Assembly (NCBI RefSeq): GCF_014647475.1
Contig: NZ_BMPG01000002.1
Location: 620,001-684,000 of the forward strand
Length of the DNA stretch: 64,000 nt
Source of the DNA: Halocalculus aciditolerans
Lineage (GTDB): Archaea > Halobacteriota > Halobacteria > Halobacteriales > Halobacteriaceae
Reading direction: 5' to 3'
The notes under the pieces were generated by a model that made no database searches, had not been told where the DNA came from, and saw nothing but the letters and a program-made list of their open reading frames with translations. Numbering within the stretch: the first letter of the stretch is position 1; the number at the start of each line of letters is the position of its first letter. The position numbers and the translations under genes are program-made. Positions 906 to 43,892 of the stretch are shown one piece after another.

Positions 906-1195
906 TTCTCGCTCGACCCCCGGGACTCGTGGCGGGTCGCGTAGCCGGCGGCGAGGAAGAAGACGCCGAGCGTGATCGCGGTCATGACCGCGCCGTAGAC
1001 CGCGAGGTTCAGCGGCGTCAACGCGAACGTTATCGGGCCGAGCGACCCGACGTTCGACGCGCCGTTCGCGGCCAGGTTCGGCTGGATGACGACGCCGACG
1101 ATCAGGCCGAGAATCGCCATCAGCGACACGGCGACTACGTAGAGGTACCCGACCATCCGCCGCCCGCCCGTCTCCGCGTGGGTCTCGACGCTCAC
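902..1195 (-). CDS. Small membrane protein of the cytochrome oxidase cluster
   Basis: About 97 residues from a GTG start, or 84 from the ATG at 1156. Two hydrophobic helices flank a short loop, followed by a polar C-terminus. Proteins of this kind commonly accompany haloarchaeal cox genes without a proven role; an assembly or accessory role is only inferred from position. It is divergent from a 29-residue membrane peptide across a 58-bp gap, and its last codons overlap the end of the convergent HAD gene. Confidence 0.6.
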   Translation of the reverse strand: MSVETHAETGGRRMVGYLYVVAVSLMAILGLIVGVVIQPNLAANGASNVGSLGPITFALTPLNLAVYGAVMTAITLGVFFLAAGYATRHESRGSSEN

Positions 1196-1253
1196 ACTCG
1201 CGTCTTCACACCGGAGCGATTAGCCTTTTGCGCTCCGCGGCGAACACCCACGT

Positions 1254-1343
1254 ATGCAGGAGAAGGATTACCTGATGCTCGCGCTCGTCGCCACCGCACT
1301 CCTCGTCATGCTCGCGGGCTTCGCCGTCGTCTTCCAACACTAA
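1254..1343 (+). CDS. 29-residue single-helix membrane peptide
   Basis: A very short ORF with MQEKDYLM at its start, then an uninterrupted hydrophobic helix ending in VFQH. A TTAGCCTTTT tract at about 1220-1229 lies some 25-30 bp upstream, the spacing expected for a leaderless archaeal transcript. The single-helix layout resembles the tiny accessory subunits of heme-copper oxidases, and the gene sits between oxidase-cluster genes. That role is inference; the peptide could also be a chance ORF. Confidence 0.5.
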   Translation: MQEKDYLMLALVATALLVMLAGFAVVFQH

Positions 1344-1518
1344 CGGCGCACTCCCGCGGCCCCCGCGTACTTCCAGCCCCCTCTCGACAGGGCCACCACT
1401 CGTTCGTGTAGGGTCACACACCGAATCCCCCTTCTCGCCGGCACTGCTCCGAGTAGCCGTCGCTCTCCGAGTCAGCTGAGAGCGAAACGAAAAACGGCGA
1501 CGGCGGGTCAGTCGTGCG

Positions 1519-3282
1519 TCAGTCCGCGGTCTGAGAGGCGTCGGTGTCGGCGTCCGCGTCGACGTCCTCGCCGCCGTCGGCGAGCATCGTCTGGCGCTTG
1601 CGCTCGAACCACTGCCAGTCGTTCGTGAACTGCCCGGACTCCTTGAGGTTCCACGGATCGGCGCTGTCGATGGTGCGGCCGGCGCGCCACGCCTGGAAGG
1701 CGTTCCAGACCCAGACCGCCGTGCTGATCGTGATGAGGATCGCGCCGAGCGTCGCGACTTCGTGCCACGTCGTGAAGCGCGGGAGGTAGGTCGCGTACCG
1801 CCGCGGCATCCCGCCGTAGCCGAGGATGAGCATCGCGAAGAACGTCACGTTCGACCCGACGAGGCCGGTCCAGAAGTGCCAGCGGGCGAGCTTCTTGTTG
1901 TACATCCGTCCCGTGAGCATCGGGAAGAAGTAGTAGAACGCGCCCATGAGCGCGAACCCGATCATGCCGTAGACGATGAAGTGGAAGTGGCCGACGACGT
2001 AGTAGGTGTCCTGCATGACGAGGTCGAACGGGACGGCGGCGAGGAAGACGCCGGTGACGCCGCCGATGATGAAGTTCTGTACCGCGCCGAGCATGAAGAG
2101 CATCGGGGCGGTCATCCGGAGTTTCCCGTTCCACAGCGTCGCGATCCAGTTGAAGATTTTAACCGCTGAAGGCACCCCGATGGCCAAGGAGACGGCCATG
2201 AAGGACGTGCGGAGGCGCGGGTCGAGGCCCGTCGTGAACATGTGGTGCGCCCACACGCCGAAGGAGAGGATACCGATCGCGAGCGTCGAGTAGACGATGA
2301 ACTTGAAACCGAAGAGCTTCCGACCCGCGAACTTCGGCAGGATGAGGCTCACGAGCCCCATCGGCGGGAGGACGAGGATGTAGACCTCGGGGTGGCCGAA
2401 GAACCAGAAGAGGTGCTGGAAGAGCAGCGGGCCGCCGCCGGTTCCCGGCGTGAAGAACGTCGTCGCGAAGTTCCGGTCGAGCAGGAGCATGATGACCGCC
2501 GCGCCGAGCAGCGGGAACGCGAAGAGGATGAGGACGCCCTGCGTGAGGATCGTCCAGCTGAAGATGTCGAGTTTCGACCACGGGACGGTCTCGGAGTCGC
2601 GCTCCGCGACGACGGTCGCGATGAAGTTGATGGCACCGAGCGTCGTCGAGATCCCGGACAGGTGGAAACCGAGGAGGAAGAGGTCGACGCCGGCGTTCTG
2701 CTGCATCGTCACCAGCGGCGTGTACATCGTCCACCCCATCGCGGCGGGCGCGATGTTGATGCCGAGCGGCTGGAGGAAGAACCCGGCCCACATCAACAGG
2801 GTCGCGGGCGGGAGGATCCAGAACGCGAAGGCGTTGATGCGCGGGAACGCCATGTCGTCCGCGTTCACGAGGAGCGGGACGACGTAGTTCCCGAGGGCGA
2901 AGATGAACGGCGCGGCGAACAAGAAGAGCATCGTGATGCCGTGCGTCGTCATCAGGCCGTTGTAGAACGTCGGCGAGATGACGTCCGCTTTCGGCGTCAT
3001 GAGCTCGACGCGCATCAGGAGGACGGCGAGTCCGCCCCACGCGAACGCGACGACACCGAAGAGCGCGTAGAGCTTCCCGATGTCCTTGTGGTCGACGGTC
3101 GTCAGCCAGCGCGTGAGACCGCCGGGTTTCTCTTCGTGATGGGAGCCGTCGCCGTACCCACCAGCACCGGTCCCGATCGGGGTGTACGAGCGCCAGTCCT
3201 CGACGCGCGCGAGCCAGCCCGCCACAGCGACGAGTAGCACCCCCATAAGCACTGTCAGCACGAGTTGCGGGGTCACAGCCAT
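1519..3282 (-). CDS. ctaD: Cytochrome c oxidase subunit I (aa3-type heme-copper oxidase)
   Basis: The catalytic subunit that reduces O2 to water and pumps protons across the cell membrane. From the ATG at 3282 it has 587 residues: one extra N-terminal helix, then DHKDIG and the twelve-helix core. Ligands are visible: the low-spin heme His in TTHG (about residue 114), GHPEVY (296-301, CuB His, the Glu of the proton path and the cross-linked Tyr), the HH pair (346-347), and GHFHF (432, 434) for hemes a3 and a. An upstream in-frame TTG would add only ten residues. It is the last large gene of the minus-strand cox cluster. Confidence 0.96.
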   Translation of the reverse strand: MAVTPQLVLTVLMGVLLVAVAGWLARVEDWRSYTPIGTGAGGYGDGSHHEEKPGGLTRWLTTVDHKDIGKLYALFGVVAFAWGGLAVLLMRVELMTPKADVISPTFYNGLMTTHGITMLFLFAAPFIFALGNYVVPLLVNADDMAFPRINAFAFWILPPATLLMWAGFFLQPLGINIAPAAMGWTMYTPLVTMQQNAGVDLFLLGFHLSGISTTLGAINFIATVVAERDSETVPWSKLDIFSWTILTQGVLILFAFPLLGAAVIMLLLDRNFATTFFTPGTGGGPLLFQHLFWFFGHPEVYILVLPPMGLVSLILPKFAGRKLFGFKFIVYSTLAIGILSFGVWAHHMFTTGLDPRLRTSFMAVSLAIGVPSAVKIFNWIATLWNGKLRMTAPMLFMLGAVQNFIIGGVTGVFLAAVPFDLVMQDTYYVVGHFHFIVYGMIGFALMGAFYYFFPMLTGRMYNKKLARWHFWTGLVGSNVTFFAMLILGYGGMPRRYATYLPRFTTWHEVATLGAILITISTAVWVWNAFQAWRAGRTIDSADPWNLKESGQFTNDWQWFERKRQTMLADGGEDVDADADTDASQTAD

Positions 3283-13778: not shown

Positions 13779-13853
13779 AGCGGGATGGGATAGCCAGGAG
13801 ATTCCGCCGGGCTCATAACCCGGAGATCGGTAGTTCAAATCTACCTCCCGCTA
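13779..13853 (+). tRNA. Initiator tRNA-Met (anticodon CAT)
   Basis: A full cloverleaf can be drawn. The acceptor stem AGCGGGA pairs with TCCCGCT at 13846-13852, with discriminator A at 13853. The anticodon stem CCGGG/CCCGG encloses CTCATAA (anticodon CAT). The T arm is GGTAG-TTCAAAT-CTACC. Initiator features are the A1:U72 end pair and three G:C pairs closing the anticodon loop. No intron. The 3' CCA is not encoded. A TnpB-bearing element starts directly after it. Confidence 0.93.
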
Positions 13854-13913
13854 TCGCGCGACGTTTTCGACGTGTGATATTTTGTACTTGGGTGCCCTTG
13901 GTCGGGTATCCCG

Positions 13914-15095
13914 ATGTCGTCCTCCACACTGGTCAAGACGCTCGTCTTCCAGTTAGACGTGGAGGAAAACGGTCGGGAACTGCTTCGTGACGCCACAATC
14001 GAAGCACGTCAAGCGTACAACGAAGCAGTGAGCCTCGCACTGTCAGGTGTCGACTTCCGGTCGATTCCGTCACGCGTGGCTGACGATGTTGCGCTCGTCA
14101 GGAACACGACCCAGCGAATTGTCTCGAAAGCGCTGGACTCCGTTCGCGCGTATCGTGAGAACGACGACTACGGCGTGCCAGACACCGAAAAAAGCGAACC
14201 GTACCCCCTCAGGTCGAACTTCGGAGAAGGGTATACGCTCGACACGAGCGACGCCGGGGACATTCAGTTCCGAGTGAGTTCCAAACCCTATCAACACATT
14301 ACTGGGATCCTCAACGGGAGTGAAGCAGACACTGCAGTGCTTCGTGCCGCGCTCACGAGCAAAGAGTGGGATGTCGGAACCGCGGAAGCACTGTTCGTCA
14401 GTGACGTTCCGGAGCTTCACATCACCGTTCGAAACACGGAGCGTGAAGTGAGAAATCCGATGTCCTGTGAAACCGTGATCGGCGTCGACATCAACGAGGA
14501 CAACGTGACGCTCACCGCACTGACGACCGATGGCATTCGAGAGAGTCGGCGTGTCGAGTACACGGATGTCAAGTCTCAGCGCCACAGATACCTTACAATT
14601 CGAAAGCGCATACAGCGTGCCGGGAAGACGAGCGCATTCGAAACACTCAGGAAGCGAGAACACCGGTACGTGAAGAACCGGGTTCACGAGGTGAGTCGTC
14701 GAATCGTCGAGTTCGCGGAACGCTTCCAGAGCGCGTGCGTGGTCTTTGAAGACCTCAAAGGCCTCCGCGACGATCTCCACTACGATGCCGTGACGAACAA
14801 TCGCGTCCACCGAATCCCGTTCGAGATGCTCCAATTTTACACCGCGTATAAGGCGGCTTTCGAGGGAATACCCAACCTTCGAGTCGACCCAGCATACACG
14901 AGCCAGACGTGCGCGCTGACGTGGTGTCGGCATGTCGAACGAGGCAACCGGCGGAAAGATCGGTTCAAATGTCGTTCCTGCGGTCATCAAGACCACGCGG
15001 ATAGGAACGCCAGTGTGAATATCGCGATACGGGGGTCGTCAAAAACGAACGTAACTGTCCCTCCTCTCGAAAGACTCCCGGCGGTTCGAGTCTGA
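13914..15095 (+). CDS. tnpB: TnpB, RNA-guided DNA endonuclease of an IS200/IS605 (IS1341)-type element
   Basis: A 393-residue TnpB with a complete split RuvC site: Asp192 in IGVDINEDN, Glu279 in VVFEDLKGLR, and Asp363 in HADRNASVN. The C-terminal zinc ribbon is Cys333-x4-Cys338 ... Cys353-x2-Cys356. Active TnpB proteins cut DNA next to a short TAM, guided by an RNA made from the 3' end of the element. All catalytic residues are kept, so it is probably active. Base composition and codon use differ from neighbours (more A/T), and no tnpA is present, both consistent with transfer. It lies 60 bp after tRNA-iMet. Confidence 0.93.
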   Translation: MSSSTLVKTLVFQLDVEENGRELLRDATIEARQAYNEAVSLALSGVDFRSIPSRVADDVALVRNTTQRIVSKALDSVRAYRENDDYGVPDTEKSEPYPLRSNFGEGYTLDTSDAGDIQFRVSSKPYQHITGILNGSEADTAVLRAALTSKEWDVGTAEALFVSDVPELHITVRNTEREVRNPMSCETVIGVDINEDNVTLTALTTDGIRESRRVEYTDVKSQRHRYLTIRKRIQRAGKTSAFETLRKREHRYVKNRVHEVSRRIVEFAERFQSACVVFEDLKGLRDDLHYDAVTNNRVHRIPFEMLQFYTAYKAAFEGIPNLRVDPAYTSQTCALTWCRHVERGNRRKDRFKCRSCGHQDHADRNASVNIAIRGSSKTNVTVPPLERLPAVRV

Positions 15096-15216
15096 GACGG
15101 GAGGTATCGGGGGCCGTGAACGCCCCGACCGCGACCCGTGGCCCAGTCTGAGGATACCACGCCGATGGGCGACGGGAGTGTCAGCAGAACCCGCGGGAAG
15201 CCGAGCCCGGCAGTTC
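15096..15216 (+). ncRNA. Candidate omega (guide) RNA region of the TnpB element
   Basis: The sequence directly after tnpB holds short stems, for example CGGGG at 15109 against CCCCG at 15123, and a GAACCCGCGGGAAGCC block at about 15188 like the right ends of haloarchaeal tnpB elements. In this family the guide RNA overlaps the tnpB 3' end and finishes at the element's right end, with the guide taken from the flank. If the end is at TTCAC (15214-15218), the guide would begin CTCCCGCTATTAC. Inferred from family architecture. Confidence 0.4.
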
Positions 15217-15228
15217 ACCTCCCGCTAT

Positions 15229-15474
15229 TACTTAGAACAGGTGTGCGCGCTCTACCGATCGATGAGTAAGTCCTGTTGTGTTCAATGTCTCGGCGTCGAC
15301 GGAGTTCCGTATCGGGAGGGAAGTACGTGGTGGACTGGAGAGCCGTTCATGGCGGTTTTCGATTGATTCGGTCACTCGGTGACTTGAGAGTCGGAGAGCG
15401 CCTACTGGGAGTGGCGATGGCGTCTGAGTGACCGCCGAGCGTGGCGGCCGGGCGCGGGGTCGCCGGAGGAGACA
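15229..15474. other. Gene-free gap after the TnpB element
   Basis: 246 bp without a convincing gene on either strand. A 62-codon frame (15178-15366) begins inside the element's right end, ignores the local base-composition bias of real genes and has no recognisable feature. The only structure noted is the small inverted repeat GGTCAC-TCG-GTGACT around 15370. Confidence 0.5.
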
Positions 15475-43163: not shown

Positions 43164-43892
43164 TTATGTCTCGTCAGAGAGTACAACTGTTCCGCGTTCA
43201 ACTTTCATGTGACAGCTCCTGCATAGCGAGACGAGATTCGAGAGGACGTGAGAGTCCTGTGGATCGTCGAACTCCCGAACAGGTGTGAGATGATGAACGT
43301 CGGGCTCCTGTCCGAGTTCATCCCGGGCCGAGCCACAGTTCTGGCACGCGTGGTCGTCTCGCTCCAGTGTCTTGCGACGGGCTTCCCGCCACCTCCCGCT
43401 GTACACGTTCGGATCGACTCCGGGACCGAGTTCTTCCGACATCCACGAGTAGAGGCAATCACAAGAGCAGAATCGGCCCTGTCCACGGTCTCGTTCGGAT
43501 TGCAGCACGACTAGCTCTGCCTCGCAGTAATCGCACTCTCTAGTGATGCGCGGTGCTTCGTTGATCTCATACGAGGGAGTACCCAAGAACTCGTCCGCCG
43601 CCGCCACGCAGTCGGGACAGTAGACGCCGTCCTTGTCCGAGGGGTAGTAGTCGAACTCGCTGCCGCACTGCCGGCACTCAGTGGTTTCTTTCGCGTCGCG
43701 GTAGTTCCCGTTGTGTTCACCGGCGTTGGGGTTGCAGTCGTCGCAGAACTCGCGTCGAGCTTTTGGGTCGTAGAATTCGACGTCGCATCCCGTACAGGTC
43801 CGGTTGGGGAGTGGGTCGCCGTGGACTTTCGTGTGGTGTTGGCGGACGCCCTGCTCCGTTCGGAGAGGTGTTCCGCAGGTCGGACAGTCCAT
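43164..43892 (-). CDS. HNH endonuclease with multiple zinc fingers
   Basis: A 242-residue Cys-rich protein. It opens with a C2H2-like finger (CPTCG then HHTKVHG), followed by three Cys4 ribbons (CTGC/CDDC, CRQC/CPDC, CDYC/CSCDC) and a C-terminal HNH domain: CQNC, DVHHLTPVREF, NLVSLCRSCH. The HH and the later N and H are the catalytic residues. HNH genes of this kind are often mobile or defence-linked and here it follows a tRNA gene. The ATG at 43892 is preferred over a GTG one codon earlier. Confidence 0.88.
   Translation of the reverse strand: MDCPTCGTPLRTEQGVRQHHTKVHGDPLPNRTCTGCDVEFYDPKARREFCDDCNPNAGEHNGNYRDAKETTECRQCGSEFDYYPSDKDGVYCPDCVAAADEFLGTPSYEINEAPRITRECDYCEAELVVLQSERDRGQGRFCSCDCLYSWMSEELGPGVDPNVYSGRWREARRKTLERDDHACQNCGSARDELGQEPDVHHLTPVREFDDPQDSHVLSNLVSLCRSCHMKVERGTVVLSDET

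What the first reader, a model, noticed from the sequence alone, without database searches (positions are those of the whole stretch)
13843..15228. TnpB nuclease gene bounded by the initiator tRNA 3' end and a copy of it
ACCTCCCGCTAT is duplicated at 13843-13854 (tRNA-iMet 3' end) and 15217-15228, and the right copy is preceded by AGTTC as in the tRNA T loop. The element thus looks inserted at a tRNA site while leaving the tRNA whole. In known TnpB systems the guide is read from the sequence just past the right end; here it would start CTCCCGCTATTAC, matching the tRNA 3' end and the flank expected at an empty site. A TnpB that recognises the vacant initiator-tRNA locus would act as a homing or retention device without TnpA. 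No essential RuvC residue is missing.
Basis: partly seen in the sequence, partly recalled or inferred. Interest (0 to 1): 0.78.

Follow-up and report, generated by a model that had tools for sequence, protein, structure and literature searches.

The report
IS605-type TnpB in an initiator-tRNA repeat
A small RNA-guided DNA-cutting enzyme left by a jumping gene sits beside the start-codon tRNA gene of a salt-loving archaeon, because the jumping gene most likely landed in a spare copy of that tRNA's tail, and its guide still spells the site as it looked before the landing.

Summary
The 12-bp duplication is real. The window carries a haloarchaeal TnpB whose RuvC and zinc residues are intact, followed by a conserved omega-RNA and the family's right terminus GTTCAC. 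The 'AGTTC' is that right terminus, not a T-loop copy. Complete relatives insert after TCTAC, which also lies in the tRNA T arm, so the initiator-tRNA 3' end is TAM plus target.

I found eight such loci (six with tnpB, two right-end remnants), all just after tRNA-iMet. Three (G363, G408, G426) keep the other half of the target: a second copy of the tRNA 3' end, about 135 bp downstream, split at TCTAC. TnpB-free relatives carry that second copy whole, in tandem arrays. So a normal IS605 element landed in a vestigial repeat and the tRNA was never cut. The window has lost its left end.

Homing on the vacant site is the generic TnpB role. It is plausible here: this TnpB and its sister in another genus sit on long branches with no transposase, yet reading frame and RNA helix are conserved. 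The recurrent landing site and the unexplained tRNA-tail array are the new parts.

The parts
13779..13853 (+). initiator tRNA-Met(CAT), intact
13840..13844 (+). TCTAC, the inferred TAM/target motif, inside the tRNA T arm
   Evidence: TCTAC precedes the left end of at least 25 complete relatives
13845..13854 (+). CTCCCGCTAT, tRNA 3' end plus one base; identical to guide bases 1-10
13855..13913 (+). 59-bp spacer; no recognisable IS605 left end and no second GTTCAAATCTAC (left end lost)
13914..15095 (+). tnpB, 393 aa, RuvC D192/E279/D363, zinc cysteines 333/338/353/356
15085..15218 (+). conserved right end / omega-RNA scaffold; helix CCGCG/CGCGG compensated against the family's CCGTG/CACGG
15213..15218 (+). 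GTTCAC, element right terminus
15219..15234 (+). predicted guide (16 nt) CTCCCGCTATTACTTA, continuing into the right flank; start of the old insertion-site flank
   Evidence: guide length by analogy with ISDra2 (PMC8612924)

Best explanation
This is an immobile remnant of an IS200/IS605-type element: an intact tnpB plus its omega-RNA, without tnpA or left end. An ancestor inserted by the usual IS605 route after a TCTAC target motif. That motif lay in a second, vestigial copy of the tRNA-iMet 3' end (GTTCAAATCTAC|CTCCCGCTA), part of a tandem array found downstream of tRNA-iMet in many haloarchaea. The right half of the split copy is now the guide. The left half and left end were later lost, which puts tnpB next to the real tRNA and makes the tRNA look duplicated around the element. 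Function (inferred): TnpB loaded with this guide would cut any allele that still has the unsplit repeat, and repair from an occupied copy would restore the element. That is a retention or homing drive, useful in a polyploid haloarchaeon. The occupied chromosome is spared because the right junction has GTTCAC instead of TCTAC, and because the tRNA itself matches the guide for only 10 bases. Shown: boundaries, target motif, guide register, recurrence, pre-existing second copy in relatives, conserved protein and RNA. Inferred: expression, cleavage, homing, and that the window's own ancestor had the second copy.
For: All 41 relatives carry GTTCAC at the right end, and at least 25 complete ones start right after TCTAC. 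Exact search for GTTCACCTCCCGCTA: in 392 genomes of the order six loci (four with tnpB, two remnants), all directly downstream of tRNA-iMet, plus two chance hits. Two more tnpB cases, G408 and G426, came from further genomes. Left half of the split second copy kept in G363 (GTTCAGATCTAC|GGCGGACC), G408 (GTTCAAATCT|CTGG) and G426 (GTTCAACTCTAC|AGATTAGC). Unsplit second copy at the same offset without tnpB in sisters G029, G179, G289, G132; in G415, 99% identical to G268 upstream; and in G014, G019, G012, G024 at the locus orthologous to the window. The window's TnpB groups with G010's at the same syntenic locus (92/93 support) on long branches of 0.69 and 0.42, against mostly 0.15 or less for mobile copies. 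Codon-position differences of 0.36/0.26/0.62 show continued protein constraint. The omega-RNA helix is kept by a compensatory change.
Against: In the window itself, and in G010 and G268, the left half of the second copy is absent, so direct insertion into the tRNA followed by repair cannot be excluded for these. No other genome of the window's own genus was available, so its exact empty junction was not seen. No expression or cleavage data. The pairing of G000 with G010 could partly be long-branch attraction.
Confidence: 0.75

Rival explanations
1. One reading: the element inserted into the tRNA gene itself and carries a replacement tRNA 3' end at its left end, so the tRNA stays whole and the guide targets the vacant tRNA gene.
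For: In G000, G010 and G147 the sequence left of the element is exactly the tRNA 3' end with no second half-copy. TAM and target are perfect in the tRNA gene.
Against: In G363, G408 and G426 the split copy is a second one downstream. Unsplit second copies pre-exist in tnpB-free relatives. The sequences left of tnpB are unrelated between cases, which is not expected of one element carrying a tRNA patch.
Confidence: 0.12
2. An ordinary, decaying IS605 fragment with no current function; the guide match is only the fossil of its insertion site.
For: No tnpA, no left end; terminal right-end hairpin shortened in G000 and G010; two right-end-only remnants elsewhere; tnpB genes without tnpA are common in haloarchaea (PMC3119063).
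Against: Intact 393-codon frame and catalytic residues despite a very long branch, third-position excess of changes, and a compensated omega-RNA helix indicate selection for much of its history.
Confidence: 0.25
3. An exapted regulator: TnpB binds tRNA-iMet through the TAM plus 10-base match and modulates initiator tRNA expression.
For: All six guides share TAM plus 9-10 bases with the host's own tRNA-iMet 3' end.
Against: The match is what the insertion site dictates; catalytic residues are intact, unlike nuclease-dead TldR regulators (recalled, not tested); the target lies at the 3' end of the gene, not at a promoter.
Confidence: 0.04

Closest known systems
IS200/IS605 TnpB-omegaRNA systems (ISDra2 TnpB)
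   Same: RuvC nuclease, omega-RNA from the right end, guide taken from the right flank, TAM equal to the left target motif
   Different: TAM is TCTAC here (TTGAT in ISDra2); no tnpA or left end remains; the guide spells a tRNA 3' end
Haloarchaeal IS605-type / IS1341-type elements and PATEs (Halobacterium sotRNAs, Natronomonas ISNph, Haloquadratum ISHwa)
   Same: Same group of archaea, tnpB often without tnpA, conserved terminal oligonucleotide used as target (PMC3119063; PMC12558985)
   Different: The window's RNA does not match any Rfam family, including the sotRNA ones; a landing site in a tRNA-iMet repeat is not described in the papers found
TnpB gene drive of insertion sequences in plasmids (PMC11870625)
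   Same: TnpB cutting IS-free copies so that IS-bearing copies take over is the mechanism proposed here
   Different: Shown on multicopy plasmids in bacteria; here only inferred, for a polyploid archaeal chromosome

Membership tests
IS200/IS605-associated TnpB | TnpB fold with RuvC DED and zinc ribbon | tested here: met
IS200/IS605-associated TnpB | conserved right-end omega-RNA ending at the element boundary | tested here: met
IS200/IS605-associated TnpB | left target motif equal to TAM, no target-site duplication | tested here: met
   TCTAC in at least 25 complete relatives; G426 and G363 split a repeat without duplication. Met for the family; in the window itself the left end is lost
IS200/IS605-associated TnpB | linked tnpA (complete IS605 element) | tested here: not met
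   no tnpA between 13855 and 15218; so it is a tnpB-only remnant of the IS1341 type, not a complete IS605 element
IS200/IS605-associated TnpB | RNA-guided cleavage of the vacant site | not testable with these tools
   needs biochemistry
tRNA-targeting integrative element (tyrosine recombinase att duplication) | integrase gene and tRNA 3' duplication bounding the element | tested here: not met
   duplication present but no integrase; boundaries are IS605 ones; no viral contig carries the 20-mer tRNA end

The most novel reading that the evidence does not exclude
Tandem initiator-tRNA 3' repeats act as a recurrent, harmless landing site from which TnpB-only lineages (G000 and G010) have persisted for a long time without a transposase. 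They would be kept by guide-directed homing into unsplit repeats across polyploid chromosomes or incoming DNA, that is, as free-living RNA-guided homing endonuclease genes.
Probability: 0.35. Interest if true: 0.65.

Novelty: new variant of a known kind. Interest (0 to 1): 0.45.

Why it matters
Why tnpB so often survives without tnpA is an open question. This locus gives eight comparable cases with a known target motif, guide and (for most) vacant sites in relatives, in polyploid archaea, so homing or retention by TnpB alone becomes directly testable. It also draws attention to an apparently undescribed array of tRNA-iMet 3' repeats.

Tried and rejected
Chance repeat: rejected (and the six tRNA-linked loci). 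Integrase att site: no integrase, and the 20-mer tRNA end is absent from viral contigs; plasmid hits showed no integrase in the annotated genes around them. T-loop copy before the right repeat: rejected, it is the GTTCAC terminus. A wider pattern with tRNA variants (CGGGA-N14-44-GTTCACYTYCCGC) re-found known loci (G000, G268, G356, G363); the other hits were not examined one by one and look like chance coding matches. Rfam sotRNA families: no match. Viral targets of the guide: the 20-mer that holds the TAM plus the first nine guide bases has no viral match.

Full report
Observation. The tRNA-Met(CAT) gene ends at 13853 and ACCTCCCGCTAT occurs at 13843-13854 and 15217-15228. A shuffle control expects 0.12 matches within one mismatch in the window; there are 3, and the third, at 43391, is imperfect. 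Between the copies lies one gene, tnpB (13914-15095).

The protein. P0001 is 393 aa; Pfam finds the Cas12f1-like TNB domain and the best solved relatives are Cas12f and TnpB (model pLDDT 79). RuvC D192, E279, D363 and the four zinc cysteines are invariant in 24 haloarchaeal relatives. The CX4C first zinc knuckle is shared by other members, so it is not damage.

The boundaries. Relatives 40-56% identical were collected in the same family and order. Their right flanks are conserved down to GTTCAC and diverge immediately after it in all 41 loci examined. In at least 25 complete elements the left end starts immediately after TCTAC, with unrelated sequence before it. The 'AGTTC' before the right repeat is the right terminus. 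The tRNA-iMet 3' end reads AAATCTAC|CTCCCGCTA, which is TAM plus target.

Recurrence. An exact search for GTTCACCTCCCGCTA in 392 genomes of the order gave eight places. Six sit directly downstream of tRNA-iMet: G000 (window), G010, G268 and G363 with tnpB, and G356 and G147 with only a right-end remnant. Two are chance hits. Searches of the genus and family of G363 added G408 and G426. About 75 copies of this TnpB family occur in 195 genomes of the order, so tRNA-iMet sites take a few per cent of copies, well above what one or two TCTAC sites among thousands per genome would give; that last comparison is a rough estimate, not a test.

What the target really is. In G426 the order is tRNA-iMet, a ~135-bp hairpin unit, GTTCAACTCTAC|left end, tnpB, right end GTTCAC|CTCCCGCTACTC. 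G363 has GTTCAGATCTAC|GGCGGACC and G408 GTTCAAATCT|CTGGCAAG at the same distance from the tRNA. So the element splits a second copy of the tRNA 3' end. tnpB-free relatives have that copy unsplit: G029, G179, G289 and G132 in the genus of G363 and G408; G415, 99% identical to G268 upstream; G014, G019, G012, G024 and others at the locus orthologous to the window's. Other sisters (G393, G342, G395) run from the tRNA straight into the flank, so arrays come and go.

The window. Its left half-copy and left end are gone: only 59 bp separate tRNA and tnpB and there is no second GTTCAAATCTAC. No other genome of its genus was held, so insertion into a second copy is inferred from the orthologous locus in relatives. 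The tnpB groups with that of G010, at the same syntenic locus, on long branches of 0.69 and 0.42, while mobile copies have branches mostly of 0.15 or less. Despite that divergence the frame is intact, third codon positions differ most (0.36/0.26/0.62), and an omega-RNA helix that is CCGTG/CACGG in most relatives and CCTCA/TGAGG in one clade is CCGCG/CGCGG here, a compensatory change. This argues for long residence under selection.

Mechanism. By analogy with ISDra2, whose guide is about 16 nt (PMC8612924), the guide would direct cleavage of unsplit copies with this flank; repair from an occupied chromosome would spread the element. Such a drive has been shown for IS200/605 on plasmids (PMC11870625). 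Haloarchaea are polyploid (general knowledge), which would make it effective. Self-cleavage is not expected: the right junction lacks TCTAC, and the host tRNA shares only 9-10 leading bases with the guide in all six tnpB cases. Expression, cleavage and homing were not tested.

Verdict. The most novel leftovers are the recurrent landing site, the long-resident TnpB pair, and the tRNA-iMet 3' repeat array itself.

Noticed in passing
downstream of tRNA-iMet in many haloarchaea, e.g. L219 (G012), L221 (G415), L217 (G029), L100, L102, L117, L162: Tandem array of 21-nt copies of the tRNA-iMet 3' end, one to four copies about 127-148 bp apart. Each unit folds into a large hairpin closed by TTCAAATCTAC...GTAGATTTGAA, followed by a second hairpin. 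The copies follow the host tRNA's own variants (TCCACTTCCCGCTA). By hand count, about a third of genomes with forward-strand hits have two or more exact copies. Nature and function unknown.
   Followed up: partly
L207 (G398), L208 (G402), L209 (G405), L210 (G394), L211 (G045): Other inserts of about 2.5-4 kb, without this tnpB, lie between tRNA-iMet and the next conserved flank; the locus seems to be a general insertion hotspot.
   Followed up: no
upstream of tnpB in L004, L006, L008, L034: Small ORFs with a sequence like ribbon-helix-helix or CopG proteins (for example MTKRLTVDFEDELYKEFSKQC...) often precede this tnpB family.
   Followed up: no
L091 (G268), 1117-2109, minus strand: A separate 330-aa transposase-like gene lies between tRNA-iMet and tnpB in G268, a second insertion into the same spot.
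   Followed up: no
L092, L206 and L251 right ends compared with window 15190-15218: The terminal right-end hairpin is enlarged in several members (G363, G408, G426) and shortened in G000 and G010, while the omega-RNA core stays fixed.
   Followed up: partly
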